Positions 5,728 to 31,149 of a stretch of 64,000 nt of DNA are shown one piece after another. The stretch is taken from positions 124,001 through 188,000 of the forward strand of contig NZ_QLYX01000009.1 of assembly GCF_003289645.1 (NCBI RefSeq), in the 5' to 3' direction. The number at the start of each line of letters is the position of its first letter. Positions within the stretch are counted from its first letter, which is position 1. The notes beneath the pieces are model-generated. The model had not been told where the DNA came from. It saw only the letters and a program-made list of their open reading frames with translations, and searched no databases. The stretch comes from Actinomadura craniellae. Its GTDB lineage: Bacteria > Actinomycetota > Actinomycetes > Streptosporangiales > Streptosporangiaceae. Position numbers and translations under genes: made by a program.

Positions 5728-5756
5728 CCACCGCACCGAGGGGGAGAGGAGAGCGC

Positions 5757-6920
5757 ATGGACCTACGCGAGACCGCGGAGCAGCGCCGGCTGCGCGAGGA
5801 GTTGCGGGCCTACTTCGCGCGCCTGCTGCCCGAGCACGAGCGCCGCCGGGTGGGCGAGGCCGGGGTCGGCGGCCCCGGCTTCCGCGACGTGGTGCGGCGG
5901 TTCGGCGCCGACGGCTGGCTCGGCATCGGCTGGCCGGTCGAGTACGGCGGGCAGGGCCGGTCGATCGCCGACCAGTACATCTTCTTCGACGAGGTCCAGC
6001 GGGCCGGGCTGCCGTTCCCGTTCGTCACCGTCAACACGGTCGGCCCCACCCTGATGAAATACGGGTCGCCGGAGCAGAAACGGCACTTCCTGCCCGGCAT
6101 CCTGTCCGGCGACATCGTCTTCGCGATCGGCTACACCGAGCCCGGCGCCGGCACCGACCTGGCGTCCCTGACCACCCGGGCGGTCCGTGACGGCGACGGG
6201 TTCGTGGTGGACGGCAGCAAGATCTTCACCAGCGGCGCCAACACCGCCGACCACATCTGGCTCGCCTGCCGGACCGACCCCGACGCCGCCCGGCACCGGG
6301 GCATCTCGATCCTGATCGTCCCCACCGACGCCCCCGGGTTCTCCTGGAGCCCCATCCAGACCGTGGGCGGTATGGCGGTGACCGCCACCTACTACGACGG
6401 CGTGCGGGTGCCCGCCGGCAACCTCGTCGGCGACCTGAACGGCGGCTGGGGGCTGATCACCACCCAGCTCAACCACGAGCGGATCGGCCTGGCCGCGCTC
6501 GGCGGGCGCATGATCCGGCTCTGGGAGGACGTCCTGGAGTGGGCCCGCGACAATGGCGCCATCGAGCTGCCGTGGGTGCGCCGGGACCTCGCCCGCTGCC
6601 ACGCCAGGCTGGAAGCGATGCGCCTGATGAACTGGAAGATGACCTGCGCGGTCGAGGCGGGCACCCTGTCCGGCGCGGACGCCGGCGCCGCCAAGGCGTA
6701 CGGCACCGAGACCCACATCGACGTGCAGCGCACCCTGACCGGCGTCCTCGGCGCGGCCGGCCGGATCCGCCCCGAGTCACCCGGCGCGGTGCTCGCCGGG
6801 CAGATCGAGCAGCTGTCCCGGCAGGGCATCGTGAACACCTTCGGCGGCGGCGTGAACGAGGTCCTCCGCGACATGGTCGCCACCCAGGGCCTGGGCCTGC
6901 CCCGGTCGAGGCGCGCATGA
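5757..6920 (+). CDS. acyl-CoA dehydrogenase, ChsE1/FadE-type subunit
   Basis: A 387-residue FAD acyl-CoA dehydrogenase. It has the N-terminal helical domain, the beta-domain signature YTEPGAGTDLASL near 125-137, and C-terminal helices ending with the FGGGVNEVLRDMVA segment. Steroid-degrading actinobacteria use heteromeric alpha2-beta2 enzymes in which one subunit supplies the base and the other much of the FAD site. The second dehydrogenase gene three positions downstream makes this a likely pair. ATG 5757 follows a GAGGGGGAGAGGA ribosome site. The stop overlaps the next ATG (ATGA, 6917-6920), implying translational coupling. Confidence 0.88.
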   Translation: MDLRETAEQRRLREELRAYFARLLPEHERRRVGEAGVGGPGFRDVVRRFGADGWLGIGWPVEYGGQGRSIADQYIFFDEVQRAGLPFPFVTVNTVGPTLMKYGSPEQKRHFLPGILSGDIVFAIGYTEPGAGTDLASLTTRAVRDGDGFVVDGSKIFTSGANTADHIWLACRTDPDAARHRGISILIVPTDAPGFSWSPIQTVGGMAVTATYYDGVRVPAGNLVGDLNGGWGLITTQLNHERIGLAALGGRMIRLWEDVLEWARDNGAIELPWVRRDLARCHARLEAMRLMNWKMTCAVEAGTLSGADAGAAKAYGTETHIDVQRTLTGVLGAAGRIRPESPGAVLAGQIEQLSRQGIVNTFGGGVNEVLRDMVATQGLGLPRSRRA

Positions 6921-7447
6921 GCGACTACGAGGAACGGCTGCAGGCGTTCGTCGGCCGCGAGCTGGCCGCGCTGCGGCCCGCCCAGGACCCGGTCAACCTG
7001 CCGATGATCCGGCACTGGGTGGAGGCGATGGGCGACACCAACCCGGTCTACCTCGACGCCGCGGCGGCCCGCGCCACCGGGCGGGACGGCGTCGTCGCCC
7101 CCGCCTCGATGGTCCAGGCGTGGACGATGCGCGGCTACGCCGCCACGGTGTCCCCGGACCGGTCGGGCGGCCCCGCGGACGAGCTGCTCGCCCTGCTCGC
7201 CGAGGGCGGCTACACCTCGGTGGTGGCGACGGACTCGGAGCTGGAGTTCCACCGCGAGCTGGTGCCCGGCGACCACGTGAGCGTGCGCGAGGTGGTCGAG
7301 GCGATCTCCGCGGAGAAGAAGACCGCACTGGGCGCGGGCCGTTTCGTGACCACCGTGCGGACCTACCACGACCAGCACGGCGAGCCGGTGGCCGCGCAGC
7401 GCTGGCGCACCCTGCGTTTCCGTCCGGCCGAGCGGGAGGGCACCTGA
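6917..7447 (+). CDS. MaoC/FAS1-like dehydratase domain protein, ChsH2 N-domain-like
   Basis: A 176-residue hot-dog protein with MIRHWVEAMGDTNPVYLD near the N-terminus, then GVVAPASMVQAWTM and SVVATDSELEFHREL. This pattern matches the N-terminal hydratase half of ChsH2, which pairs with ChsH1 to hydrate steroid enoyl-CoAs. Mycobacterial ChsH2 is about 310 residues because it carries a C-terminal DUF35 domain that docks the Ltp2 aldolase; here the protein ends after the hot-dog domain. The start overlaps the preceding stop by 4 nt, and its own stop shares one base with the next ATG at 7447. Confidence 0.83.
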   Translation: MSDYEERLQAFVGRELAALRPAQDPVNLPMIRHWVEAMGDTNPVYLDAAAARATGRDGVVAPASMVQAWTMRGYAATVSPDRSGGPADELLALLAEGGYTSVVATDSELEFHRELVPGDHVSVREVVEAISAEKKTALGAGRFVTTVRTYHDQHGEPVAAQRWRTLRFRPAEREGT

Positions 7448-8541
7448 TGGACTTCACCCTGGACGACGAGCTCGACGCGGTCCGCGGGCTGGCCGGCGAG
7501 ATCTTCACCGACCGTGCCGACCCCGCCCGGATCCGGGAGGTGGAGACCTCCGCGACCCGGATGGACGGGGACCTGTGGGCCGAGCTGGGCAAGGCGGGCC
7601 TGCTGGGCGTCGCGCTGCCCGAGGAGTACGGCGGCGCCGGGCTGGGCCTCGGCGCGCTGTGCGTCCTGCTGGAGGAGCAGGGGCGGCACGTGGCGCCCGT
7701 CCCGATCTGGCCGGCCACCGTGGCGGCGCTCGCGATCGCCGCGCACGGCACGCCGGAACAGCGCGCCGCCCTGCTCCCCGGGGCGGTGGACGGGTCGGTT
7801 CGGCTGACCGCGGCGCTGGAGGAGTTCGGCCCGCACGAGGCGGCCGAACCGGAGTGCGCGGCCCGGCCGGACGGCGACGGCTGGCGGCTGACCGGGGTCA
7901 AGGCGGTCGTCCCGACCCCGGCCGGCGCCGCCTGCGTGCTGGTCTCCGCGCGCGCCCCGGCGGGCCCCGGGCTGTTCCTGGTCGCCGCCGACGCCCCCGG
8001 CGTCGCCTGGGAACCGGCCGAGACCACCGCCCGCGACCTGGCCGGCACCCTGACCCTCACCGACGCCCCGGCCCAGGCGGTCGGCGGCGCTCTCGGCGGC
8101 GTCCTCGATCAGGCCCGGGTGGCGGTGGCCGCGCTCCAGCTCGGCGTCGCCCAGGGCGCGCTGCGGCGGGCCGCGGACTTCCTGGCGGCCCGCGAGCAGT
8201 TCGGCCGCCCGCTGGGCACCTTCCAGGCGGTGCAGCACCAGCTCGCCGACTGCTACATCGAGATCGACGCGCTGCGGGTCACCCTGTGGCAGGCCGTCAC
8301 CGACGTCGAGGACGGCGGGAACGCCGCCGCGTCGGTGCCCGTCGCCCAGTGGTGGGCGGCCGAGGGCGGGCTGAACGTCGTCCACCGGGTGCAGCACCTG
8401 CACGGCGGCATCGGCGTGGACGTCGACTACCCGATCCACCGGTACTTCCTGTGGGGCAAGCAGCTCGCGGGGACGCTGGGCGGGGCGAGCGCCCACCTGG
8501 CCCGGCTCGGCGACGCGCTGGCGGGGGGCGGCGCCCCGTGA
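7447..8541 (+). CDS. acyl-CoA dehydrogenase, second (ChsE2/FadE28-like) subunit
   Basis: A 364-residue acyl-CoA dehydrogenase-family protein with EEYGGAGLGLGALCVLLEEQ near residue 60 and a C-terminal FAD-domain segment around REQFGRPLGTFQAVQHQLAD. The beta-domain substrate signature is degenerate compared with the 5757 paralogue, as expected for the non-catalytic or FAD-site subunit of a heteromeric steroid acyl-CoA dehydrogenase. The start ATG shares a base with the preceding stop (TGATG), and the stop overlaps the next GTG by 4 nt. With the 5757 gene it should form the alpha2-beta2 enzyme (inference from family and synteny). Confidence 0.85.
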   Translation: MDFTLDDELDAVRGLAGEIFTDRADPARIREVETSATRMDGDLWAELGKAGLLGVALPEEYGGAGLGLGALCVLLEEQGRHVAPVPIWPATVAALAIAAHGTPEQRAALLPGAVDGSVRLTAALEEFGPHEAAEPECAARPDGDGWRLTGVKAVVPTPAGAACVLVSARAPAGPGLFLVAADAPGVAWEPAETTARDLAGTLTLTDAPAQAVGGALGGVLDQARVAVAALQLGVAQGALRRAADFLAAREQFGRPLGTFQAVQHQLADCYIEIDALRVTLWQAVTDVEDGGNAAASVPVAQWWAAEGGLNVVHRVQHLHGGIGVDVDYPIHRYFLWGKQLAGTLGGASAHLARLGDALAGGGAP

Positions 8542-8963
8542 AGCCCACCAGGACGTACCCGGAGGTGGCGGTCGGCGATGTCCTGCCGGCGCTGCCGATC
8601 CCGCTGACCCGCACGTTCATCGTCGCCACCGCCATCGCCAGCCGCGACTACCAGGACGTCCACCACGACCCCGCCCTGGCCGTCGAGCGGGGCTCCAAGG
8701 ACATCTTCATGAACATCCTGACCAGCAACGGGCTGGTCGACCGGTACGTCACCGGCTGGGCCGGCCCCGCCGCGGTCGTCCGGTCGATCAAGATCCGGCT
8801 CGGCGCCCCCAACCACCCCGGCGACACCATGGTGCTGACCGGCACTGTGTCCGCCAAGCACGGCGACGGCCGGGTGGAGATCTCCGTGCGCGGCGCCAAC
8901 GGCCTCGGCGACCACGTCACCGGCACCGTCGTCGTCGAGCTTCCCGGGGCCGGTGAGGCATGA
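8538..8963 (+). CDS. MaoC-like hydratase, ChsH1-like
   Basis: A 141-residue single hot-dog protein. The stretch around SRDYQDVHHDPALAVERG, followed by SKDIFMNILTSNGLVDRYV and GDHVTGTV, closely matches what I recall of mycobacterial ChsH1 (Rv3541c), including the catalytic QDVHHD motif. ChsH1 pairs with the ChsH2 hot-dog domain to add water to the C17 side-chain enoyl-CoA. GTG 8538 overlaps the upstream stop (GTGA). The stop at 8961-8963 overlaps an ATG that opens a 34-codon frame where ltp2 would normally follow. Confidence 0.87.
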   Translation: MKPTRTYPEVAVGDVLPALPIPLTRTFIVATAIASRDYQDVHHDPALAVERGSKDIFMNILTSNGLVDRYVTGWAGPAAVVRSIKIRLGAPNHPGDTMVLTGTVSAKHGDGRVEISVRGANGLGDHVTGTVVVELPGAGEA

Positions 8964-15729: not shown

Positions 15730-18700
15730 TCAGCCCCCGTAACGGAAGCAGAGCAGCTCGTCCGGGGTGTCCACGAGGAGGTACCCGGTCCCGGCCGGCC
15801 ACAGACCGAGCACCTCACCGGGCACCTGGAGCGGGTCCGCCCGCCGCCAGGTGGCGACGTCCCAGGTCCACAGGCCGCCCAGGGCGTCACCGGAGACCAC
15901 GACGCTCCGGCCGCCGAACTCGGCGGCGCACAGCGCGGTGACCGCGGCCGGGTGCCCCGGCACGGGGTCGCCGATCGCGTCGCCCGCGGCGAGGTCCAGC
16001 CGGTGCAGCGTCCCGTCGGCGGCCCCGGTCACCTGGACCAGCCGCCCCGCCGCGACGACCACGGCGGCGGGTGACCCGACCGGGGCCTCGGTCACGGGAG
16101 CGCCCGCCCAGCCCTCGGCCGGGACGAGGGCCGGGCGGACCGGATCCCACAGCCATCGCGAACCGTCCCTGCGGCGCAGCGCCGCCAGCGCCCGGCCGCC
16201 GACCCCGACCGGCCGGACCTCGACATAGTGGTCACGGCCCGGCGAGGGGAGGGCGGTGCCGGTGCGGAGTTCGCGGGCCACGCCACGGGACGACGCGTTC
16301 GTCGTCACCACCGTGTACCAGCCGGGGCCCTCCAGCACCGCCACCGACGGGAGCCGGCGGGCCGGGCCCCACCACCACAGGCGTTCCCGGCCCTCCGGAT
16401 CGGCCGTCAGCAGCCGTTCCCGGCTCGGGTCCGCCGCGAGCAGGCGGGTCGCTCCCACATCGCTCACCAGCGGCGCGGCGACCTCGGCCCCGGAGGTGAG
16501 ATCCCACAGTCGGAGGGCGCCGCGCCCGTCGGTCCCGGCGACGGCCGACCGGTCGCCGGCCTCGTGCACGGCCAGGCTCCGCAGCGGCGAACCGGTCTGC
16601 AGCCCGGCCCCCTGCGAGGCTCCGGTGACCGGATCCCAGAACCGGATCATCGCGTCCTCGCCCGCGGTGATCGCGAGGACGCGGTCGCCCACCCGGGCGA
16701 TCGCCGCGGCGGTCACCGGCCCGGCATGGCCGGCGATCGGCTCGCCGAGCGGGATCAGAGTGAACAGGTTCCACAGCCGCACCGACCCGTCGGACTCACC
16801 GGTGACCGCGACGGAGCGGTCGTCGAGGACGCCGGTCGCCAGTGCGGTGGGCTGGCCGAGGACGTTCCCGTAACCGTTCAGCCGGTCGGGGACCGCCGGG
16901 TCCCACCATCCGGCGAGCCCGGATCCGGCGACGACGATCGCCGGGCAGCCCCGGACCCGCCCGATCGCGACCTGGGTGAACGGGATACCAGGTGAGAAGG
17001 AGGCCAGCCGTTCCCCCGTCCGGACGTCGGTCAGCCGGAGCAGGCCGCCCACCGCGGCGGCCATGACCGGGCGCCCCCGGAGGTCGCCGAGCGCGATCGC
17101 GGCGGCCCCTCCGTTCCGGGGCTCCGCCAGCGGGACGGCCGTCAACTCCGCGGCCGGGACGGCTCCGGACGACGGCCGGTCCACGGTCCACACCGGCCGC
17201 CATGGCAGCGGCGGCCCGTGCGGTGGAGCGGCGACCCGCTCGGCGAGTACGGACTGCCCGGCCCGGGCCAGCGCCAGCGCCAGCGCCTCGCGGCGCGCGG
17301 GCGGATCGGCCGCGTCCACCGTCTCGACGAGATCCCGGAAGCGGGTGGCGGCCGGCAGGTCTGCGCCGGCCAGCAGGGCTTGCAGGCCGGGGTCGGCGTG
17401 GATGAGGAACTCCGCGTCGTCCAGGAGGGTTTCCGGTGTTCCCGCGGAGATCGCGTGCTCGATCGCGTGCCGCCGCAGGTAGGGCTCGGCCAGATCCCAG
17501 CGGTGACCGCCGCCCGCGGCGCCCAGGGGCGCGAGCAAAGCGGCGAGCAGCGCCGCCTCGGCGTCCCGCCGGGACGTCCCGGCCTCGCGCCGGTCGCGCA
17601 GGTGCTCGGCGAGCCCCGCGTGGAACAGCCGGTACAGGGTGGTGCCGTCGGTGTCGGTCGAGCGGCGCAGGTAGAAACGGGCGGCGTCCAGCGCGGCGGC
17701 GACCTGCCCCCGGGTGGGGGCGTCCCCGCCGGAGACGGGGACGCAGCGGGCGGCCAGCGCGGCGGGCATCCCCTCCCCGCGGGCGTAGGCGAGGGCGGTG
17801 AGCAGCGGGCGCAGCCACCGGGTGTCGGTGCGGCCGGTGAGGTCCAGCTCGAACACCCCGGGCAGGGTGCGGGGCACCTCGCGGCCGAGTTCGGCGGCGC
17901 GTTCCGGGGACGGCATCGGGTCCCCGGCGGCGGTGGTGACGTGGTGGGTGTACAGCCCCGCCACCAGGAACTCGCCCCACCGCTCCTCCCCGGCCGGCAC
18001 GGGGGCGCCCAGGGTCCGGGCGACCTCGGTGGCGAACGCCCCGCGGACCCCGCCCCGGTCGCGGTAGTCCGGGTGCGGGCGCAGCAGCTTCTGGACGTAG
18101 TCCTCCAACTCGCCGGTGAGCACGGTCCGGTCCACCCCGTCGAGGTCGAGCAGGCCGCCCGCCCGCTCCGCCTCGCGCAGCAGTTCCTCGAACCCCCAGC
18201 GGCGGGTGCCGACGAGCAGCCGGCAGGCGGGCTCCCCGTCCGGGCGGACCGCGCGGGCCAGGGGGAGCAGCAGGGCGTCCATCACCTCGGCGGGGCCGAT
18301 CGCCTCGTCGAGCGCGTCGAGCACGACGACCGGCGGCCGGTCCTGTGCCGCGACGCCCGCGACCAGCGCCGCCGGCTCGGCGTCCAGGCCGAGCTGGCGG
18401 GCCAGGGAGGCGGCGATCTCGGCGAGGTCCCGCTGCCGGGCGTGGACGGCGGCCAGGTGCTCGATCGGCCACGGTGCCATCTCCACGTGCCGCCACACCC
18501 CTTCGGTGGGGGCGCGCAGCCGGGGGTGCGCGGCGCACACCAGCACGCCCAGCAGCGCCGACTTGCCCACCCCCGGGCTGCCGGTCACCATCCGGATCGC
18601 GCCGGGTTCGAAGCCGTGCATCCAGGGGACCAGGCTCCGCAGCTCGTCGCGGCGCCCGCTGAAGCACCCCAGGGCCGCCTGGTCGCCCAACCGGCGGTGG

Positions 18701-21700
18701 CCCACCGCGCGCTCGTAGAAGTGGGCGGCGTCCAGCGCCTCGTCGACGTCGTCGAGGAAGGGGCCGACCCCCGTGTCCACCTCCGCTCGGGCCCGGCGGG
18801 CGGGGTTCGGCGCGTAGCCGGGGTTACGGAAGAACGGCTGCTCGGGGAGGTCGGAGGTGAGGTCGATCAGGCTGCCGGTGACCTGCTGCGGGTCCCCGTC
18901 GGACTCCTCGCCCAGCCGCTTGACCTCCTGCCCGATGGTGCGGGCGATCGTGGTGAAGGGCGCGTGCTCCAGCGACGGGTCGATGTCGAGCGTGCCCGCC
19001 GCCAGCGCCCCGAGCACGTCGGCCGCCGCCCGGGTCAGCCGCCCGTCGAAGGCCGCCCGGTCGGGCGCGCACGCCGCGATCACCCAGGCCCGGGCCCCGC
19101 CCGCCGCCACCCGGGCCTGCCAGGGCAGCCGGGCGGCGGTACCCGCGTAGCACAGGTCCAGGAGGAACAGGGTCGGTGTCCGCGCGCCGTCCTGCACCGA
19201 CACCAGCCAGTCCTCCACCTGGGCGAGGCGGTGGGTCTGGCCGTCGGCGCCCACGACGTAGAGCTTGCCGGTCTCGTTCGAGCGCTCGCCGTGCGCGATC
19301 ACGTGCACGACCAGTACTTCGCCGGGCGCCGCCGCGTCGATGTGCTCGTGCACCGCCGTGCCCAGCGCCGCGGCGGACGGCTCGGCCTCCGGGGCCGGGG
19401 CGCACTCGTACCCCAGGCCGGTCAGCGCGGTGCGCAGCCGGTCCGCCAGTTCCGCCGCATAGGGGAGTTCCCGGCCGGGATCGGGGGCGGAGCCCACCCC
19501 GACGCAGAGCGCCCGGCCGACGCCGGGCGGGGCACCGGGCTCCGGCGCCGGCACGGGGGCGGACCGCACGGTCGCCGGGTTCTCCCAGTCCGAGCGGTTC
19601 GGCGCGGGCCGGTCGGGAATCGCCGCCGGGCCGGTGGGGGCGTCCGGCGAGGCCGGCTCCGCGGCCGGGACACCCCGGGTCCCCGCGACGATTTCGAGTA
19701 TCAGATTCTCGGTGACCAGGTCCGGGGAGTCCGGGCCGGGCGCGGTGGACCGGGCCCGCTGGACGGTCGCGAGGGCCGTGTCGAGCAGGGCGAAGGCCGA
19801 CCCCGGCAGGTTGCGGTCGGCGAACCGGGCGGCGGCGGTCAGCGCGTCGTCGGTGATCGAGATCCCGTGGTGCTCCTCGTACCGGGGGCGGGCGGCGCGC
19901 AGCATCTCCGCGACCAGCGTGGGGTCGGGCGGCGCGACCTTGACCACGAAGAACCGGGAGTCGAGACCGGTGCTCACCCGGAGCCGTTCGTACGCGGCCG
20001 GCGTGGTGGCCCGGACGAGCCGTACCCGGGCGTCGTCCAGCAGTCGCCGGAGGCCCGGATCGTCGGGCGGGTCCTCGTCGCCGGGGTGCTCGATCTCGTC
20101 CTCGATGAAGAGCCGGAGTATTTTGCTGGGGCGGAGACCGGCGACGATGCGGTGGACGTCGTCCCACCGCCCGGCCCCGGGAGCAGCCTCTCCGGCCGCG
20201 AACCGGTACACCCCGCCTGACACCCGGCCGGCGGCGATCTGGTGTGCCAGCCCCTCGACCACCGCGGTCCGTCCGGTGCCGCGCTCGCCGACCAGGATGA
20301 TGGGGGCACCCGCCTGGAGGACGAGCTGATCGATCTCGTCGTGCCGTCCGATGACGGGCCAGAGCCGCCCCTCCCGGGCGGCCTGGACGAGGTCACCCGT
20401 CGGCCGGGCGGGCGGCCCGGCCGGGGCTGTCCAGTCGGGAACGTGCTCGGGCCGGTGCCAATACATCATGCTGTGGGTTCGCGAGCGGATCCGGTCGAGG
20501 TCGGTGCCCAGTCGCACCAGGATCTGGGCGGCCACGCCCTCGCCCTCGCGGACCAGTCCCAGCAGCAGATGCACGGGTTCGACGTGGCCGTGGCCGAGCC
20601 GTTGCGCTTCCGACTGTGACAGTTCCACCAGCTTCTTGGCCCGGGGAGTGAACGAGAGGTGTCCCGTGGGCGCCTGCTGCCCCAGGCCGATGATCTCTTT
20701 GACCTGCCGGCGCACGGCCTCCAGGCCGATGTCCAGGCTCTCCAGGGCCCTGGCCGCGACCCCCTCGCCCTCGCGGATCAGGCCCAGGAGGATGTGTTCG
20801 GTGCCGACGTAGTTGTGCTGGAGAGCCCTGGCCTCCTCCTGGGCCAGGGCGGACACGTGCAGCGCACGGTCGGTGAACCGCCCGGCGGGATCCGCCGCCG
20901 GTGCGGGCGGCGGGAAGACGGCGGTGGGCGCCGTCCTGGTCGTCGTGCCACCGGCGTGCGCGGAGGATTCCGACGGCCTGCCCACCGCGGCCGGCTCCCC
21001 GCCCTGGTGATCGTGGAGTAGCCGGACGACCTGCTGGCGGACCCGGTCGAGGCCGGCGCCCAGCTTCACCAGGATCTGGGCGGCCACGCCCTCGCCCTCG
21101 CGGACCAGGCCCAGCAGGACGTGCTCGGTGCCGATGCGGTCGTGGCCGAGCAGCTGTGCCTCGTGCACGGAGAGCTCCAGCACCTTCTTGGCCCGGGGAG
21201 TGAACGGGATGTGTCCCGTGGGCGCCTGCTGCCCCGGGCCGATGATCTCTTCGATCTGCCGGCGCACGGCCTCCAGGCTGATGTCCAGGCTCTCCAGGGC
21301 CCTGGCCGCGACCCCCTCGCCCTCGCGGATCAGGCCCAGGAGGACGTGCTCGGTGCCGATGTAGTCGTGATTGAAAGGCCTGGCCTCCTCCTGGGCCAGG
21401 ACGACGGCGCGCCGCGCGCGGTCGGTGAACCGCTCGAAGGGGACTGCGGCCGAGCGGCCCGTCGCCCCGGTCGCCTGCTTGCCGGAGATCAGACGCATCA
21501 CCTGCTGCCGGACCTGGTCGAGCCGGAAGCCCAGGTTCGCCAGGATCTGTACGGCGCCGCCCTCGCCCTCGCGGAGCAACCCCAGCAGGATGTGCTCGGT
21601 GCCGATGTAGTTGTGGCCGAGCAACTGTGCCTCGCGCGGGGAGAGCTCCAGCACCTTCTTGGCCCGGGGAGTGAACGGGATGTGTCCCGAGGCCTTCTGC

Positions 21701-21912
21701 CGGTCTTGGCCGCCGACCTGCGCGACCTGCCGGCGCACGGTCTCCAGGTCGATGCCCAGGCTTCCCAGGGCGGTGGCCGCGATTCCCTCGCCCTCGCGGA
21801 TCAGCCCCAGCAGGAGGTGTTCGGTGCCCATGAGCCCGTGGCCGAGCGCCTTGGTTTCCTCCTGGGTCAGGGAGACCACGCGCCGTGCGCGGTCGGTGAA
21901 CCTCTCGAACAC
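15730..21912 (-). CDS. giant multidomain Clp_N - AAA+ - caspase-like - NACHT/STAND - WD40 protein
   Basis: A 2060-residue protein. Domains in order: three double Clp_N modules (about 1-145, 158-303, 344-480), each half carrying a GTEH helix; a ClpC-type AAA+ module (about 505-745) whose Walker A is GERGTGRT, Lys replaced by Arg548, with no second AAA; a caspase-like peptidase C14 domain (about 798-1015) with His874 (IAHGE) and Cys921 (LDLCYAG); a NACHT/STAND-type NTPase with Walker A GSPGVGKS (1111-1118) and Walker B VVVLDALDEA (1195-1204); a helical arm; and a C-terminal propeller (about 1650-2060) with WD40-like units such as SDGSVRLWNL and DAMIRFWDP. Starts at GTG 21912. Caspase-STAND-WD40 fusions are known in bacterial conflict systems. 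I infer a sensor-gated protease whose Clp_N array selects substrates or detects phosphoarginine. It is intact and in frame, and no partner gene is adjacent. Confidence 0.9.
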   Translation of the reverse strand: MFERFTDRARRVVSLTQEETKALGHGLMGTEHLLLGLIREGEGIAATALGSLGIDLETVRRQVAQVGGQDRQKASGHIPFTPRAKKVLELSPREAQLLGHNYIGTEHILLGLLREGEGGAVQILANLGFRLDQVRQQVMRLISGKQATGATGRSAAVPFERFTDRARRAVVLAQEEARPFNHDYIGTEHVLLGLIREGEGVAARALESLDISLEAVRRQIEEIIGPGQQAPTGHIPFTPRAKKVLELSVHEAQLLGHDRIGTEHVLLGLVREGEGVAAQILVKLGAGLDRVRQQVVRLLHDHQGGEPAAVGRPSESSAHAGGTTTRTAPTAVFPPPAPAADPAGRFTDRALHVSALAQEEARALQHNYVGTEHILLGLIREGEGVAARALESLDIGLEAVRRQVKEIIGLGQQAPTGHLSFTPRAKKLVELSQSEAQRLGHGHVEPVHLLLGLVREGEGVAAQILVRLGTDLDRIRSRTHSMMYWHRPEHVPDWTAPAGPPARPTGDLVQAAREGRLWPVIGRHDEIDQLVLQAGAPIILVGERGTGRTAVVEGLAHQIAAGRVSGGVYRFAAGEAAPGAGRWDDVHRIVAGLRPSKILRLFIEDEIEHPGDEDPPDDPGLRRLLDDARVRLVRATTPAAYERLRVSTGLDSRFFVVKVAPPDPTLVAEMLRAARPRYEEHHGISITDDALTAAARFADRNLPGSAFALLDTALATVQRARSTAPGPDSPDLVTENLILEIVAGTRGVPAAEPASPDAPTGPAAIPDRPAPNRSDWENPATVRSAPVPAPEPGAPPGVGRALCVGVGSAPDPGRELPYAAELADRLRTALTGLGYECAPAPEAEPSAAALGTAVHEHIDAAAPGEVLVVHVIAHGERSNETGKLYVVGADGQTHRLAQVEDWLVSVQDGARTPTLFLLDLCYAGTAARLPWQARVAAGGARAWVIAACAPDRAAFDGRLTRAAADVLGALAAGTLDIDPSLEHAPFTTIARTIGQEVKRLGEESDGDPQQVTGSLIDLTSDLPEQPFFRNPGYAPNPARRARAEVDTGVGPFLDDVDEALDAAHFYERAVGHRRLGDQAALGCFSGRRDELRSLVPWMHGFEPGAIRMVTGSPGVGKSALLGVLVCAAHPRLRAPTEGVWRHVEMAPWPIEHLAAVHARQRDLAEIAASLARQLGLDAEPAALVAGVAAQDRPPVVVLDALDEAIGPAEVMDALLLPLARAVRPDGEPACRLLVGTRRWGFEELLREAERAGGLLDLDGVDRTVLTGELEDYVQKLLRPHPDYRDRGGVRGAFATEVARTLGAPVPAGEERWGEFLVAGLYTHHVTTAAGDPMPSPERAAELGREVPRTLPGVFELDLTGRTDTRWLRPLLTALAYARGEGMPAALAARCVPVSGGDAPTRGQVAAALDAARFYLRRSTDTDGTTLYRLFHAGLAEHLRDRREAGTSRRDAEAALLAALLAPLGAAGGGHRWDLAEPYLRRHAIEHAISAGTPETLLDDAEFLIHADPGLQALLAGADLPAATRFRDLVETVDAADPPARREALALALARAGQSVLAERVAAPPHGPPLPWRPVWTVDRPSSGAVPAAELTAVPLAEPRNGGAAAIALGDLRGRPVMAAAVGGLLRLTDVRTGERLASFSPGIPFTQVAIGRVRGCPAIVVAGSGLAGWWDPAVPDRLNGYGNVLGQPTALATGVLDDRSVAVTGESDGSVRLWNLFTLIPLGEPIAGHAGPVTAAAIARVGDRVLAITAGEDAMIRFWDPVTGASQGAGLQTGSPLRSLAVHEAGDRSAVAGTDGRGALRLWDLTSGAEVAAPLVSDVGATRLLAADPSRERLLTADPEGRERLWWWGPARRLPSVAVLEGPGWYTVVTTNASSRGVARELRTGTALPSPGRDHYVEVRPVGVGGRALAALRRRDGSRWLWDPVRPALVPAEGWAGAPVTEAPVGSPAAVVVAAGRLVQVTGAADGTLHRLDLAAGDAIGDPVPGHPAAVTALCAAEFGGRSVVVSGDALGGLWTWDVATWRRADPLQVPGEVLGLWPAGTGYLLVDTPDELLCFRYGG
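20473..21912 (-). repeat. three tandem Clp_N-encoding units within the giant gene
   Basis: Units at about 21478-21912, 21004-21441 and 20473-20883 encode residues 1-145, 158-303 and 344-480. Units 2 and 3 are the most alike, sharing blocks such as REGEGVAARALESLDI and IIG.GQQAPTGH, and also match at DNA level, so one duplication looks recent. A Thr/Pro-rich linker (residues about 304-343) separates units 2 and 3. Confidence 0.85.
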
Positions 21913-25026: not shown

Positions 25027-25039
25027 GAAGGGGGGATGC

Positions 25040-25987
25040 ATGGAGTTCATGCCGTCCCCCGCCGGGGCGGCCGAGCAGGTCGCCCGGCAGGCGATCGACG
25101 CCGCCCGCTGGGCTCCGTCGGTGCTCAACACCCAGCCGTGGTGGTTCGGCCTGCACGGCGCGCGGATCAGCCTGCACGAGGACATCGAGCGGCGGATGCC
25201 GGTGGCCGATCCGACCGGCCGGGAGGCGGTGATCAGCTGTGGGGCCGCGCTGCTCACGCTGCGCGTGGCCCTGTGCCGGCTGGGCCGTACGCCCGAGGTG
25301 GACCTGCTGCCCGACCCCGACCGGCCGGCGCTGCTCGCCGATGTGTCGCCGGGCCGCCCGTGCCGGTCGGAGGAGGACACCGACCGGATGTACGAGCAGA
25401 TCCGGCTGCGGCGCTCCCACCGGGGCGGCTTCCGCGCCCCGCTCGGCCCGCCGGACCTGCCGGACCGCCTCCGGGTGGAGGCCCGGCAGGAAGGCGCGGT
25501 GCTCCTGCTGGTCGCCGACTCCCACACCCGGGACGCGCTGGCCGCGCTGACCCAGGCCGCCGAGCACGTCCAGCGGCTGGACCCCCGGTACGTCGCGGAG
25601 GCGGCCCTGCGATCGTACGGTCCGCCCGGCCCGGCCGGGCCCGAGAACGTCGAGCCGTACTTCCCGGGCCGAGGCCGGAGCGCCGTGCCCGGGACCGGCA
25701 CGGCCGAACTCGGCACCGTGGCGCTCGTCGTCACCGAGGGAGACGCCCGCGCCGACTGGCTGCGGGCGGGGCAGGCACTGCAGCGGGTGCTGCTGCGCGC
25801 CGCCGTGGCGGGGGTGTCGGCCGCGTTCCACACCCAGCCGCTGGAGGTCCCGGAGCTGCGGGAGTTCGTCCGGACCAGGTTCTGCGCCGGCCGGTATCCC
25901 CAGGTGCTCCTGCGGCTGGGGGTGGCCGACCGGCCGCCGCCCGGCACCCGCCGCCCGGCCGAGGAGGTCGTGGCACCGGAACCCTGA
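25040..25987 (+). CDS. Acg-like nitroreductase-family protein
   Basis: A 315-residue protein of the double nitroreductase-fold Acg group. [18 protein letters not shown] near residue 20 is the characteristic start, followed by [15 protein letters not shown] and [13 protein letters not shown]. Mycobacterial Acg (Rv2032) is a DosR-regulon protein proposed to sequester flavin rather than act as a true reductase. ATG 25040 is preceded by AAGGGGGG and a strong hairpin. It lies 71 bp ahead of phosphoketolase and is likely co-transcribed with it and the universal-stress gene. Confidence 0.85.
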
Positions 25988-26058
25988 CCGGTGATTGTCC
26001 GCCCCCGTCCCGGGAAGGGCGGCAACGGTCCCGTCCACCAGCGCGAGGGAATCCCGTC

Positions 26059-28440
26059 ATGACACAGACCGTCACTCCCGCCGGCCGGCCCACCGGCGAG
26101 GAGGAACTCCAGGTGCTCGACGCCTACTGGCGGGCCGCCAACTACCTGTCCGTGGGCCAGATCTACCTGCGGGCCAACCCGCTGCTGCACGAGCCGCTGC
26201 GCCCGGAGCACGTCAAGCCCCGGCTGCTGGGCCACTGGGGCACGTCCCCCGGGCTGAACTTCTGCTACGCGCACCTGAACCGGGTGATCACGGCGCGGGA
26301 CCAGGACATGATCTACATCATGGGGCCCGGGCACGGCGGCCCGGCCGCGGTGGCCAACGCCTGGCTGGAGGGCACCTACAGCGAGATCTACCCGCACGTC
26401 TCCCAGGACACCGCGGGCATGGCCCGGCTGTTCCGGCAGTTCTCCTACCCGGGCGGGATCCCCAGCCACGTCGCGCCGGAGACGCCCGGCTCGATCCACG
26501 AGGGCGGCGAGCTCGGCTACGCCCTGACGCACGCCTACGGGGCGGCCTTCGACAACCCCGACCTGGTGGTGGCCTGCATCGTCGGCGACGGCGAGGCCGA
26601 GACCGGGCCGCTGGCCGCGAGCTGGCACTCCAACAAGTTCCTCGACCCGGTCTCCGACGGGGCGGTGCTGCCGATCCTGCACCTGAACGGGTACAAGATC
26701 GCCAGCGCCACCGTGCTGGCCCGGATCCCCGAGCACGAGCTGATCTCGCTGCTGGAGGGGTACGGGCACCGGCCCTACCTGGTCGGCGGGGACGACCCCG
26801 CCAAGATGCACCGGGCGATGGCGGCCGCCCTCGATGCGGCCTTCGACGACATCGAGGGCATCCAGGCGGCGGCCCGCACCGGCGGCACGACCACGGACCG
26901 GCCCCGCTGGCCGATGATCGTCCTGCGCACGCCCAAGGGCTGGACGGGCCCCCGGGAGGTCGACGGCGTGCCGGTGGAGGGCACCTGGCGGTCGCACCAG
27001 GTGCCGCTGCCAGGGGTCCGTGACGACCCCGCCCACCTGGAGCAGCTGGCGGGCTGGCTGCGCTCGTACCGGCCGGAGGAACTGTTCGACCCCGGCGGCC
27101 GTCCGGTCGCCGAGCTGCGGGCCCTGGCGCCGCAGGGCGACCGGCGGATGAGCGCCAACCCGCACGCCAACGGCGGCGTGCTGCTGCGCGAACTGATCCT
27201 GCCGGACTTCCGCGACTTCGGGATCGAGGTCGAGCGGCCGGGCACCACGTCCACCTCGCCCACCCGGGCGCTCGGCGCGTACCTGCGCGAGGTCGTCCGG
27301 GCCAACCCGCACAACTTCCGGATCATGGGGCCGGACGAGACCGCCTCCAACCGGCTGGACGCGGTGTTCGAGGTCACCGACCGGGTGCTGCGGGCCAGGC
27401 TGCTGGACACCGACGAGCACCTGGCGCCCGCCGGCAGGGTGATGGAGGTGCTCAGCGAGCACCTGTGCGAGGGCTGGCTGGAGGGGTACCTGCTGACCGG
27501 CCGGCACGGCCTGTTCAACAGCTACGAGGCGTTCGTCCACATCGTGGACAGCATGTTCAACCAGCACGCCAAGTGGCTGAAGGTCACCCGGCACCTGCCC
27601 TGGCGGCGGCCCATCGCCTCGCTGAACTACCTGCTCAGCTCGCACGTCTGGCGGCAGGACCACAACGGTTTCACCCATCAGGACCCCGGCTTCCTGGACG
27701 TGGTCATGAACAAGAAGCCGGAGATCGTCCGGGTCTATCTGCCGCCGGACGCCAACACCCTGCTGTCGGTGGGCGACCACTGCCTGCGCTCCCGGGACTA
27801 CATCAACGTGGTCGTCGCTGGCAAGCAGCCCGCGCTGAACTGGCTGCCGATGCCCGAAGCGGTCCTGCACTGCACCCGGGGCATCGGGATCTGGGAGTGG
27901 GCGAGCACCGACGGCGGCGCCGACCCCGACGTGGTGCTCGCCTGCGCCGGTGACGTCCCGACCCTGGAGACGCTGGCCGCCGCCGACCTGCTCCGGCAGT
28001 ACTTCCCCGAACTGCGCGTCCGGGTGATCAACGTGGTGGACCTGATGCGGCTGCAACCCGACACCGAGCACCCGCACGGCCTCACCGACCCGGAGTTCGA
28101 CGCGCTGTTCACCACCGACCGGCCGGTCATCTTCGCCTTCCACGGCTACCCGTACCTGATCCACCGGCTCGCCTACCGGCGGAACAACCACGCGAACCTG
28201 CACGTGCGCGGGTACCAGGAGGAGGGCACCACCACCACGCCCTTCGACATGGTGATGCTCAACAACCTGGACCGTTTCCATCTGGTGATGGACGTCATCG
28301 ACCGGGTTCCGGGGCTGGGCGGCCGGGTCGCCCACGTCCGGCAGCGGATGGCCGACTCCCGGGTCGCCCACCGCGCCTACACCCGCGAGCACGGCGAGGA
28401 CTCCCCGGAGATCCGCGACTGGGTCTGGCCGCACCACTAG
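26059..28440 (+). CDS. xfp: phosphoketolase (xylulose-5-phosphate/fructose-6-phosphate)
   Basis: A 793-residue ThDP enzyme cleaving xylulose-5-P or fructose-6-P with phosphate to acetyl phosphate plus a C3 or C4 sugar phosphate. Both phosphoketolase signatures are visible: [14 protein letters not shown] (about 150) and [11 protein letters not shown] (about 177). The C-terminal XFP domain includes [20 protein letters not shown]. The length is typical. ATG 26059 follows GCGAGGGA; the frame is open upstream but that region belongs to another gene. It gives an oxygen-independent route to acetyl-P/ATP and fits the stress genes on either side. Confidence 0.95.
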
Positions 28441-29362: not shown

Positions 29363-29490
29363 GGCGGGTGCTTCCTTGCTCGCGGTAATCGCCTGGTTCA
29401 TTCATGCATTTCTCAAGCTATGGTCTGGTTTGTCATGGTGATGCAGGTCATGTCCCTCGTGAAGGGGTGATGCGTGTTTTGATGGGCCGC

Positions 29491-31149
29491 ATGGCGAATC
29501 CGGCGATCCTGACCGTCGATGACGATCCGGCCGTCTCCCGGGCGGTGGCCCGGGACGTGCGGCGCCGGTACGGCGACCGGTACCGGGTGGTCCGGGCCGA
29601 ATCCGGCCGGGCGGCTCTGGAGGCGCTGCGCGAGATCAAGCTGCGCGGCGAGCGCGTCGCCCTGCTGCTGGCCGACCACCGGATGCCGGAGATGAACGGC
29701 ATCGAGTTCCTCGAAGCCGCGATGGACCTGTTCCCGGCAGCCCGCAGGGTCCTGCTCACCGCGTACGCCGACACCGGCGCGGCCATCGACGCGATCAACC
29801 TCGTCGACCTCGACCACTACCTGCTCAAGCCGTGGAACCCGCCGGAGGAGAACCTCTACCCGGTGCTCGACGCGCTGCTGGAGGCCTGGCTCGCCGCCCC
29901 CGACCCGGCGGTGGGCGAGACCCGGGTGGTCGGGCACCGCTGGTCCGCGCCGTCCTTCAAGACCCGTGACTTCCTGGCCCGGAACCTGGTGCCCTACCGC
30001 TGGCTGACCACCGACGAGCCGGAGGGCCGCCGGCTGCTCGCCGCCGCCGGGGTCGGCCCCGACGACGTGCCGCTGGTCGTCACGCCCGACGGGAAGTCGC
30101 TGGTCAAGCCGTCCGCGGCCGAACTGGCCCAGCACGTCGGGCTGATCACCTCTCCCGCGGCCGACTTCTACGACGTAGTGATCGTCGGGGCGGGGCCCGC
30201 CGGGCTGGGCGCGGCGGTCTACGCGGCGTCCGAAGGGCTGCGCACGGTGCTCGTGGAGCAGCGGGCCACCGGCGGGCAGGCCGGCCAGAGCAGCCGGATC
30301 GAGAACTACCTGGGCTTCCCCGACGGGGTCTCGGGGGCGCAACTCGCCGAGCGCGCCCGCCGGCAGTCCCTGAAGTTCGGCGCCGAACTGATCACCGCCC
30401 GCGAGGTCGTCGAGCTGGAACCCGCCGGGTCGGCCCGGCTGCTGCGGTTCTCCGACGGCACGTCCGTCTCCTCGCACTCCGTGGTGCTGGCCACCGGCGT
30501 CTCCTACCGCAAGCTCACCGCGCCCGGCCTGGCGGAGCTGACCGGGCGCGGCGTGTTCTACGGCTCGGCGGCCACCGAGGCGCCGTCCTGCGCGGACCAG
30601 GAGGTGTACATCGTGGGCGGCGCCAACTCCGCCGGGCAGGCGGCGGTCTACTTCTCCCGGTACGCCCGGCGGGTCCACCTGCTGGTCCGCGGCGACGGGC
30701 TGACCCACTCGATGTCGCAGTACCTGATCGACCAGATCGAAGACATCGAGACCATCGAGGTGCACCCGCACACCGTGGTGGCGGGGGCCGCCGGGGACAC
30801 CCACCTGCGCGAGCTGACCCTGTGCGACTCCCGGACGGGCCAGGCCCACACGGTCGAGACCTCCTGGCTGTTCGTCTTCATCGGCGCCGAGCCGCGGACC
30901 GACTGGCTCCACCCGGTGGTCACCCGGGACCCGCGCGGCTTCGTCGTCACCGGCTCCGACCTGCTCGTCGAGGGGCGGCGCCCGGCCGGCTGGTCGTTGC
31001 CCCGCGACCCGTACCACCTGGAGAGCAGCGTGCCCGGGGTCTTCGCGGCCGGCGACGTGCGCGCCGCCTCGATGAAACGGGTCGCCTCCGCCGTGGGCGA
31101 GGGCGCGATGGCGGTCTCGCTCGTGCACCGCTACCTGGAGGCCCAGTGA
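29491..31149 (+). CDS. response-regulator receiver fused to thioredoxin-reductase-like FAD oxidoreductase
   Basis: A 552-residue fusion. Residues 1-125 are a CheY-like receiver with phosphoacceptor Asp62 (LLLADHRMP), switch Thr90 and Lys113 (LLKPW). Residues about 225-550 are a thioredoxin-reductase-type flavoprotein with FAD motif VGAGPAGLG (about 232-240) and NAD(P) motif VGGANSAGQAA. The CxxC redox pair is missing: the corresponding stretch reads ATEAPSC, one Cys only. Several in-frame starts exist (29470, 29479, 29482, 29491); MANPAILTVDDD at 29491 fits homologues best, though the nearest GAAGGGG is 24 nt away. It overlaps the next gene by 4 nt. Probably a redox-state signalling protein partnered by the next kinase. 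Confidence 0.85.
   Translation: MANPAILTVDDDPAVSRAVARDVRRRYGDRYRVVRAESGRAALEALREIKLRGERVALLLADHRMPEMNGIEFLEAAMDLFPAARRVLLTAYADTGAAIDAINLVDLDHYLLKPWNPPEENLYPVLDALLEAWLAAPDPAVGETRVVGHRWSAPSFKTRDFLARNLVPYRWLTTDEPEGRRLLAAAGVGPDDVPLVVTPDGKSLVKPSAAELAQHVGLITSPAADFYDVVIVGAGPAGLGAAVYAASEGLRTVLVEQRATGGQAGQSSRIENYLGFPDGVSGAQLAERARRQSLKFGAELITAREVVELEPAGSARLLRFSDGTSVSSHSVVLATGVSYRKLTAPGLAELTGRGVFYGSAATEAPSCADQEVYIVGGANSAGQAAVYFSRYARRVHLLVRGDGLTHSMSQYLIDQIEDIETIEVHPHTVVAGAAGDTHLRELTLCDSRTGQAHTVETSWLFVFIGAEPRTDWLHPVVTRDPRGFVVTGSDLLVEGRRPAGWSLPRDPYHLESSVPGVFAAGDVRAASMKRVASAVGEGAMAVSLVHRYLEAQ

What the first reader, a model, noticed from the sequence alone, without database searches (positions are those of the whole stretch)
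15730..21912. A single 2060-codon gene fuses three Clp_N pairs, a ClpC-type AAA+, a caspase-like protease, a NACHT/STAND NTPase and a WD40-like propeller
All domains are in one uninterrupted frame with an intact caspase His874/Cys921 dyad and intact Walker A/B in the NACHT-type NTPase. Caspase-STAND-WD40 proteins are known from bacterial conflict and programmed-death systems, but I do not recall this ClpC-derived front end. The design suggests a protease that is switched on when the propeller or Clp_N array senses damage, infection or marked proteins.
Basis: partly seen in the sequence, partly recalled or inferred. Interest (0 to 1): 0.9.

Follow-up and report, generated by a model that had tools for sequence, protein, structure and literature searches.

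The report
Bacterial death-protease carrying ClpC bait
One actinobacterium-type genome has a giant protein that joins a caspase-like protease switch, resembling animal and plant cell-death sensors, to three copies of the docking domain of its own protein-recycling machine ClpC1 plus a ruined piece of its motor, which looks like a built-in bait for something that attacks ClpC1, although this is untested and the fusion was seen in only one genome.

Summary
The gene lies on the minus strand (21912 to 15730): 2060 codons, GTG start, TGA stop. It holds three ClpC-type N-terminal domains, a ClpC D1 segment, a caspase domain with H874/C921, a STAND-type NTPase and a propeller. One correction matters: the AAA+ part is not a working ClpC motor. 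Only D1 remains, and 5 of 9 checked positions that are invariant in 14 of 14 ClpC1 proteins are changed; M-domain and D2 are gone. Caspase-NACHT-WD40 is a known bacterial architecture (PMC3501461). What is unusual is the ClpC front end: 0 of 61 other caspase loci scanned carry Clp_N in the same frame. The Clp_N copies are closest to this lineage's own clpC1, while the motor decayed much further. My best reading is a ClpC1-mimicking bait fused to a caspase/NLR-like switch, like an integrated decoy of plant NLRs. Against a maintained sensor: one genome only, relaxed-looking substitutions in much of the front end, and no clear enrichment of kept ligand residues. Passenger fusion and a substrate-recruiting role remain open.

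The parts
15730..21912 (-). whole gene: 2060 codons, GTG start at 21912, stop TGA at 15730-15732
   Evidence: the ORF listing and translation; GC3 85-99% throughout; the GTG aligns with the ATG of the genome's own clpC1
21472..21912 (-). Clp_N pair 1 (residues 1-147), 69% identical to own ClpC1 NTD
   Evidence: Pfam Clp_N; identity
21001..21441 (-). Clp_N pair 2 (residues 158-304), 81% identical to own ClpC1 NTD
   Evidence: best solved relatives are ClpC1/ClpC N-terminal domains
20452..20886 (-). Clp_N pair 3 (residues 343-487), 66% identical to own ClpC1 NTD; second GTEH motif and F2 lost
19708..20397 (-). degenerate ClpC D1 AAA+ segment (residues 506-735), 39% identical to own ClpC1 D1; Walker A K to R, Walker B DE to ED, pore-loop Y and first Arg finger lost
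19522..19707 (-). Pro/Ala-rich linker (residues 736-797); several homologous caspase frames begin at about its end
   Evidence: stop-to-stop frames of L040, L043, L051, L052 and L055 begin within 8 residues of the match
18814..19530 (-). caspase-fold protease domain (residues about 795-1033)
   Evidence: AlphaFold2 plus Foldseek/VIA; Peptidase_C14 18.5 bits, just under its cut-off 21.4
19291..19293 (-). catalytic His874 codon
   Evidence: invariant in 24 of 24
19150..19152 (-). catalytic Cys921 codon
   Evidence: invariant in 24 of 24
17320..18675 (-). STAND-type NTPase with helical region (residues about 1080-1531); Walker A at 1111-1118, Walker B at 1197-1204
   Evidence: alignment A1, model and fold search
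15733..17085 (-). C-terminal WD40-like propeller (residues about 1610-2060)
   Evidence: Pfam WD40 and propeller matches, WD40 25.7 bits against a cut-off of 27; C-terminus matched by own C5 and C34 paralogues; not modelled

Best explanation
It is a single-chain caspase/STAND cell-death or defence switch that has captured a mimic of the cell's own ClpC1. SHOWN: a caspase fold with its dyad, a STAND-type NTPase with intact nucleotide motifs, a propeller by sequence, and in front three ClpC1-type N-terminal domains plus a ruined ClpC D1. SUPPORTED: the NTD copies derive from this lineage's own clpC1, the join lies at the ancestral caspase start, and the ClpC part cannot be a working unfoldase. 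INFERRED mechanism: in the resting protein the STAND module is ADP-bound and holds the caspase off. The three Clp_N domains act as bait for a molecule that targets ClpC1 (a phage protein, a ClpC-binding cyclic peptide, or pArg-marked or adaptor proteins that pile up when ClpC1 is blocked). Ligand on the bait, possibly together with a ligand on the propeller, releases the STAND module, which exchanges nucleotide and oligomerises, clustering and activating the caspases, which then cleave host proteins and stop or kill the cell. This is the logic of an integrated decoy in a plant NLR.
For: Anatomy. Broken motor: 5 of 9 checked positions that are invariant in 14 of 14 ClpC1 proteins are changed, and M-domain and D2 are missing. 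Origin from own clpC1: fraction of differing synonymous codons 0.21-0.30 to own ClpC1 NTD versus 0.31-0.50 to the 13 other ClpC1 NTDs compared; unrooted codon tree split 'pairs + own ClpC1' against 13 others, support 95. Uneven decay: Clp_N pairs are 66-81% identical to own ClpC1 while D1 is 39%, although among ClpC1 proteins both parts are 88-100%. Cyclomarin contacts F80 and E89 (PMC10030653) and K85 (PMC12583610) are kept in 3 of 3 pairs and F2 in 2 of 3; pArg-site Glu is kept in 5 of 6 motifs. Frame kept open: in a neutral-drift simulation only 4% of 300 runs (D1) and 2.5% of 200 runs (three NTDs) had no stop. Precedent: mycobacterial ClpC2, a free ClpC1-NTD mimic, sequesters cyclomarin (PMC10030653, passages).
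Against: The fusion was found in one genome only (0 of 61 other caspase loci; 0 of 20 relatives matched the caspase part). Substitutions between pairs look nearly unconstrained (pN/pS 0.82-1.08) and D1 is at 1.03, as expected of a decaying passenger; synonymous sites near GC saturation make these ratios rough. Kept ligand residues are not clearly enriched: the seven positions named in the two papers are kept in 19 of 21 cells against 72% overall (one-sided P 0.04), but adding the three contact positions I had recalled and also looked at (V13, H77, L92) gives 24 of 30, P 0.22. The origin dating is not sharp: own ClpC1 differs from that of the nearest other genus (L023) by 0.29, about as much as pair 1 does from own ClpC1 (0.30), and for D1 the own gene is not the closest. 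Neighbouring genes give no defence island. No expression or activity data. pArg sensing has no support from the genome: no arginine-kinase hit, but no control genome rang either, so inconclusive.
Confidence: 0.37

Rival explanations
1. Passenger fusion: a duplicated clpC1 fragment landed in frame in front of a caspase-STAND-WD40 gene and is drifting; the working part is the ordinary caspase switch, and the front end has no dedicated role beyond being tolerated.
For: Seen in one genome only; pN/pS about 1 between pairs and in D1; D1 clearly ruined; kept ligand residues not clearly enriched when all ten positions looked at are counted (24 of 30, P 0.22).
Against: No stop in about 735 front-end codons, although neutral drift to the observed amino-acid divergence left a stop-free D1 in 4% and stop-free NTDs in 2.5% of runs (about 700 of those codons simulated, base composition assumed). 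The eight internal length changes in the D1 alignment all keep the frame. Three tandem NTD copies imply duplication and retention. The caspase-STAND part itself evolves fast (pN/pS 0.50-0.63), so rapid change is not proof of decay.
Confidence: 0.3
2. Substrate-recruiting protease: the Clp_N array is an adaptor-docking head that brings ClpC clients (damaged, pArg-marked or adaptor-bound proteins) to the fused caspase, making a ClpP-independent quality-control or regulatory protease.
For: Three NTDs with most pArg-site Glu and groove residues kept; ClpC NTDs recruit pArg substrates and adaptors (PMC12583610, passages).
Against: Caspase-fold proteases cut at specific residues and do not thread (recalled); the motor needed to unfold clients is broken. 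The STAND-propeller half implies a triggered switch. No arginine-kinase hit, inconclusive.
Confidence: 0.18
3. Antibiotic sponge or sensor in the manner of ClpC2: the NTD array chiefly binds ClpC1-directed cyclic peptides made by competing actinobacteria, either soaking them up or triggering the switch.
For: F80, E89 and K85 kept in 3 of 3 pairs and F2 in 2 of 3; ClpC2 precedent (PMC10030653, passages). This is one concrete case of the bait model.
Against: A sponge must be abundant, and a 2060-residue protease is a costly one; L92, recalled as a contact of related peptides, is changed in 3 of 3 pairs; none of the nine neighbours scanned is a resistance or peptide-synthesis gene by its Pfam names.
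Confidence: 0.1
4. Assembly or gene-call artefact joining clpC1 to a caspase gene.
For: Draft genome of 41 contigs.
Against: The gene is interior to a 309,660-base contig; its ClpC part is 39-81% identical to the genome's clpC1, so it is not a copy of those reads; one GC3-consistent frame.
Confidence: 0.02

Closest known systems
Prokaryotic metacaspase-NACHT-WD40 proteins (PMC3501461, passages read)
   Same: caspase, then NACHT/STAND, then WD40, in one chain; NACHT-bearing ones include Actinobacteria
   Different: no word beginning with 'Clp' in that paper's main text; here a 735-residue ClpC front end precedes the caspase
Caspase plus alpha/beta-hydrolase gene pairs of VMAP conflict systems (PMC7159879, passages read)
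   Same: 19 of 25 named homologous loci, and the stretch around the own C40 paralogue, hold a related gene that looks like an alpha/beta-hydrolase (Pfam hydrolase matches of the two scanned are below cut-off)
   Different: no such gene in the 64-kb window and no vWA or MoxR gene among the nine neighbours scanned
ClpN repeats fused to vWA in FtsH ternary systems, and EACC1-caspase proteins with Clp-like protease domains behind the caspase (PMC7159879, passages read)
   Same: ClpN repeats or Clp-like protease domains in conflict systems that hold a caspase-like peptidase
   Different: there ClpN is on a vWA protein with the caspase in another gene, or a Clp-like protease follows the caspase; here ClpN and a dead ClpC D1 precede the caspase in one chain with STAND and propeller
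[quoted passage not shown]
   Same: a Clp-type AAA+ attached to a cell-death type module
   Different: no caspase, STAND or Clp_N array is mentioned for it in the passage
Mycobacterial ClpC2 (PMC10030653, passages read)
   Same: a ClpC1-NTD mimic keeping F2, F80 and E89
   Different: a separate partial homologue of ClpC1; here fused to a protease switch and in three copies
Apaf-1/Dark apoptosome and plant NLRs with integrated decoys (fold matches; decoy concept recalled)
   Same: STAND NTPase with a sensor part gating a death effector; host-target mimic fused to the receptor
   Different: bacterial; protease fused in cis; sensing role not shown

Membership tests
Caspase-fold (C14-like) peptidases | caspase fold | tested here: met
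   Z 20.6, rmsd 2.9, 200 residues to MALT1; many caspases and metacaspases
Caspase-fold (C14-like) peptidases | His/Cys dyad | tested here: met
   H874 and C921 invariant in 24 of 24
Caspase-fold (C14-like) peptidases | Pfam Peptidase_C14 gathering score | tested here: inconclusive
   window segment 18.5 bits, cut-off 21.4; own C5 paralogue 24.7, above it
Caspase-fold (C14-like) peptidases | proteolytic activity | not testable with these tools
   no experiment
STAND NTPases | Walker A and hydrophobic-DxxDE Walker B | tested here: met
   GSPGVGKS and VLDALDEA, conserved with three paralogues
STAND NTPases | NTPase plus winged-helix/helical arrangement | tested here: inconclusive
   long alignments to Apaf-1 (430 residues, Z 13.2, rmsd 6.0), NRC2 (309, Z 14.8, rmsd 5.3) and STAND 6mfv (332, Z 13.9, rmsd 5.9), but Cdc6 ranks first (237, Z 15.6, rmsd 4.2) and such Z values are in the range warned of for helical models
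STAND NTPases | curated STAND profile (Pfam nSTAND1) | tested here: inconclusive
   21.6-21.9 bits, cut-off 27.1
NACHT clade | NACHT profile | tested here: inconclusive
   no Pfam NACHT match to the STAND part of the window protein (the one weak NACHT row lies in the ClpC D1); 15.4 bits in the C5 paralogue, cut-off 26.7
ClpC unfoldase | ClpC N-terminal domain | tested here: met
   three copies, 66-81% to own ClpC1
ClpC unfoldase | functional D1 motifs | tested here: not met
   Walker A K, Walker B D and E, pore-loop Y and Arg finger 1 changed; invariant in 14 of 14 ClpC1
ClpC unfoldase | M-domain, D2 and ClpP loop | tested here: not met
   ClpC homology stops in the D1 lid, about residue 725-750
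ClpC2-type mimic | cyclomarin-contact residues F2, F80, E89 | tested here: met
   all three in pairs 1 and 2; F2 lost in pair 3
ClpC2-type mimic | binding to and induction by the compound | not testable with these tools
   needs protein and RNA assays
VMAP or FtsH ternary systems | vWA and MoxR partner genes | tested here: not met
   none among the nine neighbouring genes scanned with Pfam, about 9-31 kb of the window
Caspase plus alpha/beta-hydrolase pair | hydrolase gene next door | tested here: not met
   no tblastn hit in the 64-kb window; the only match in the genome lies beside the C40 paralogue

The most novel reading that the evidence does not exclude
A bacterial integrated-decoy receptor: an NLR-like caspase switch that guards the protease machine ClpC1 by wearing three copies of its docking domain on a dead motor stub, so that any phage protein or rival's antibiotic that engages ClpC1 triggers cell death or dormancy.
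Probability: 0.28. Interest if true: 0.86.

Novelty: new variant of a known kind. Interest (0 to 1): 0.57.

Why it matters
Integrated decoys are a central idea in plant immunity; a bacterial NLR-like caspase carrying a dead mimic of a host machine would show the same solution in prokaryotes and would point to ClpC1 as something invaders or competitors attack. ClpC1 is also an antibiotic target, so a natural fused ClpC1 mimic is a testable lead on who attacks it and how cells notice. Even if the front end is a passenger, it is a clean example of a new N-terminal part arising by in-frame fusion at the old start of a caspase-STAND gene.

Tried and rejected
A viral-contig search with the caspase-STAND region found no relative. 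A plasmid search found many ClpC and caspase-STAND-WD40 genes but 0 of 1558 matching records in which one place covers at least 80% of the protein. PADLOC on this protein gave three weak partial P-loop hits; on nine neighbours one weak oxidoreductase hit. Arginine kinase in the own genome: no hit, but no control genome rang either, so inconclusive. Shared promoter with clpC1: only two 8-base chance matches between the two upstream regions. The 278-aa and 289-aa neighbours of the C5 and C34 paralogues, which I first took for hydrolases by size, are an NAD-binding protein and an HhH-GPD glycosylase. I considered and rejected an assembly chimera (the ClpC part is not identical to clpC1) and a working ClpC-caspase machine (dead motor). 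JC-corrected dS values were not used for dating because third positions are near GC saturation. Mobile elements around the gene were not searched for.

What was only partly looked at: of the places outside the own genome I fetched and scanned 25 of 37 (the 12 left out all have E of 2e-5 or weaker); of the 20 further places (of the 12 left out, three have E below 1e-10, with frames of 744-796 aa, too short for this front end plus caspase and STAND). Of 13 frames listed with an N-terminal extension (one a duplicate), 10 were scanned with Pfam. In the ClpC1 comparison 6 of 20 loci tried gave no usable ClpC1 frame and were dropped, and one kept frame is partial. pN/pS among ClpC1 proteins was computed against 4 of the 13 others. 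The script labelled two pArg positions in Bacillus numbering, off by one in this protein; those residues were read from the alignment instead.


Full report
WHAT IS THERE. The gene is on the minus strand, window 21912 to 15730, 2060 codons with a GTG start. The GTG falls exactly where the genome's own clpC1 has its ATG, and third-position GC is 85-99% in every block, so the fusion is one coding frame. Residues 1-147, 158-304 and 343-487 are complete ClpC-type N-terminal domains (Clp_N pairs) with 69, 81 and 66% identity to the own ClpC1. Residues about 506-735 match ClpC D1 at 39%. Residues about 795-1033 are a caspase domain, about 1080-1531 a STAND-type NTPase, and the C-terminal 450 a WD40-like propeller by sequence.

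THE CASPASE IS REAL, THE STAND LIKELY. Pfam does not quite reach its Peptidase_C14 cut-off for this protein (18.5 of 21.4 bits), but the closest own paralogue does (24.7). An AlphaFold2 model from a 24-sequence alignment (pLDDT 83.3, pTM 0.80) matches MALT1 (Z 20.6, rmsd 2.9, 200 residues), animal caspases and metacaspases. H874 and C921 are invariant in 24 of 24. The NTPase has intact Walker motifs. Its model (pLDDT 85.9) matches plant NLRs, bacterial STAND proteins, Apaf-1 and Dark (Apaf-1: Z 13.2, rmsd 6.0, 430 residues) alongside Cdc6/ORC AAA+ proteins, which rank as high or higher (Cdc6 Z 15.6, rmsd 4.2, 237 residues). Curated nSTAND1, AAA_16 and NACHT profiles stay below cut-off or absent. 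So STAND is likely from motifs, long NLR-type alignments and context; the NACHT label is not settled.

THE ClpC PART IS A DEAD MIMIC. Against 14 ClpC1 proteins (own plus 13 from other genomes), nine catalytic or pore positions were compared: all nine are invariant in 14 of 14, and the fused protein differs at five (Walker A Lys to Arg, pore-loop Tyr to Arg, Walker B Asp-Glu to Glu-Asp, first Arg finger to Ser) and keeps four. M-domain and D2 are absent. Without pore loop and D2 it should neither thread substrates nor dock ClpP (inference). The NTDs keep many residues known to bind ligands: the glutamates of the two pArg sites (PMC12583610, passages) in 5 of 6, cyclomarin contacts F80 and E89 (PMC10030653, passages) and K85 (PMC12583610) in 3 of 3, F2 in 2 of 3. 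Whether that is more than chance is unclear: the seven positions named in the papers (F2, T7, E32, F80, K85, E89, E106) are kept in 19 of 21 cells against 72% overall, one-sided P 0.04, but with V13, H77 and L92, which I recalled as contacts and also looked at, it is 24 of 30, P 0.22.

WHERE IT CAME FROM. Synonymous differences of the three pairs are lowest to the own ClpC1 (0.21-0.30 against 0.31-0.50 for 13 others), and an unrooted codon tree splits pairs plus own ClpC1 from the 13 others with support 95, with the three pairs also set apart from all ClpC1 (support 98). So the NTD copies most likely arose from clpC1 within this lineage, or were kept alike by conversion. This is not sharp: own ClpC1 differs from the nearest other genus by 0.29, and for D1 the own gene is not the closest (0.32 to own, 0.27-0.46 to others). 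The genome has three further caspase-STAND genes without Clp_N: C5 (64% identical over 798-1420, WD40), C34 (WD40, about 4 kb from the end of clpC1, beside an HhH-GPD glycosylase gene and disA) and C40 (with a C-terminal protein-kinase-like domain, recognised by eye from the translation, and a hydrolase-like neighbour). The nearest gene in a named genome is in Actinomadura sp. HBU206391 (65%, frame of 1404 residues, no Clp_N). In that and several other homologues the open frame itself starts within 8 residues of the match, so the ClpC piece was joined at the old start of a caspase gene.

HOW COMMON. The caspase part matched in 31 of 297 genomes of the order and 22 of 394 of the class, own genome included in both and some genomes in both; in 20 near relatives it matched in none. 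I scanned 61 loci with a caspase frame (25 named, 3 own paralogue stretches, 33 from other genomes, at least three fetched twice) for Clp_N in the same frame: 0 of 61; the only Clp_N hit was clpC1 itself near the C34 paralogue. Not every match was fetched (see Tried and rejected). Of 10 N-terminal extensions of other caspase proteins scanned, 3 hold a TIR domain, 1 a PNP_UDP_1 domain and 6 nothing known. So the N-terminal slot can take other parts, but the ClpC piece is so far private to this genome.

SELECTION. pN/pS is 0.36-0.59 between pairs and own ClpC1, 0.82-1.08 among the pairs, 1.03 for D1, and 0.50-0.63 for the caspase-STAND part between this protein, the C5 paralogue and the Actinomadura gene; ClpC1 itself shows 0.006-0.19 against the four other genera tried. 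The front end therefore changes fast, D1 as if unconstrained. Against simple decay: neutral drift to the observed depth left no stop in only 4% (D1, 300 runs) and 2.5% (NTDs, 200 runs) of simulations, and the eight internal length differences in D1 keep frame. Synonymous sites are close to GC saturation, so all ratios are rough.

CONTEXT. In the homologous loci, 19 of 25 hold a related gene that looks like an alpha/beta-hydrolase. Its Pfam hydrolase matches are below cut-off (best 20.1 of 26.3 bits), so the name is tentative; it fits the caspase-hydrolase pairing reported for VMAP systems (PMC7159879, passages). The window has no such gene and the own genome has one, beside C40. The nine neighbours scanned are a MaoC-type and an enoyl-CoA hydratase, a short-chain dehydrogenase, an AMP-binding enzyme, a luciferase-like monooxygenase, a class II aminoacyl-tRNA synthetase with editing domain, a phosphoketolase, a universal stress protein and a receiver-oxidoreductase.

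READING. I favour a bait or decoy: NTDs kept as ClpC1 look-alikes, motor dead, fused to a switch whose relatives in animals and plants turn target binding into oligomerisation and death (recalled). The nearest precedent for the bait half is mycobacterial ClpC2, which sequesters cyclomarin (PMC10030653, passages); for the general idea that inactive enzyme copies in such systems act as decoys, PMC7159879 (passages). That paper also reports ClpN repeats on vWA proteins of a ternary system whose effector is typically a caspase-like peptidase, and Clp-like protease domains behind the caspase of EACC1 systems; [quoted passage not shown] So Clp parts and death modules do meet elsewhere, in other arrangements. 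Rivals are a drifting passenger (0.30) and a substrate-recruiting head (0.18). Nothing here shows a ligand, protease activity or a phenotype.

NOVELTY. Searches for Clp_N with caspase, NACHT and STAND (1 paper, PMC7159879), Clp N-terminal domain with caspase and STAND NTPase, caspase/NACHT/WD40 in actinobacteria, Clp_N with Peptidase_C14 (0 papers) and ClpC with caspase-like, NLR, decoy and Streptomyces listed no description of this architecture; of the papers listed I read passages of three (PMC7159879, PMC3501461, PMC8195603). Only open-licence papers are held, so this is not proof. The core is a known kind (metacaspase-NACHT-WD40, PMC3501461); the ClpC front end makes it a new variant.

Noticed in passing
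L076 (own genome C40:282000-297000), about 5199-8888 minus: Caspase-STAND paralogue whose C-terminus looks like a Ser/Thr protein kinase instead of WD40 (by eye from the translation), with a hydrolase-like gene nearby and two Lsr2 genes next to it.
   Followed up: partly
L077 (own genome C34:400000-419000): A caspase-STAND-WD40 paralogue sits between an HhH-GPD glycosylase/disA pair and clpC1 (about 4 kb from the end of clpC1).
   Followed up: partly
L040-L064: A gene that looks like an alpha/beta-hydrolase (sub-cut-off Pfam matches) lies in the same locus as the caspase-STAND gene in 19 of 25 named loci, like the pairing reported for VMAP caspases in PMC7159879.
   Followed up: partly
L083, L084, L085: Very long frames (2232-2491 aa) with a TIR domain in front of a distant caspase-like domain.
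   Followed up: no
L062 5009-6970: A PNP_UDP_1 (phosphorylase superfamily) domain in front of a distant caspase-like domain in Streptomyces sp. TBY4.
   Followed up: no
L015 1273-1827: A free-standing diverged Clp_N pair (184 aa) in the same genome (C13), of the size and kind of a ClpC2-like small protein.
   Followed up: no
window 25036-28440 +: Phosphoketolase frame with about 350 residues before the XFP domain; the true start is probably further in.
   Followed up: no
window 29404-31149 +: Response-regulator receiver domain fused to a pyridine-nucleotide-disulphide oxidoreductase.
   Followed up: no
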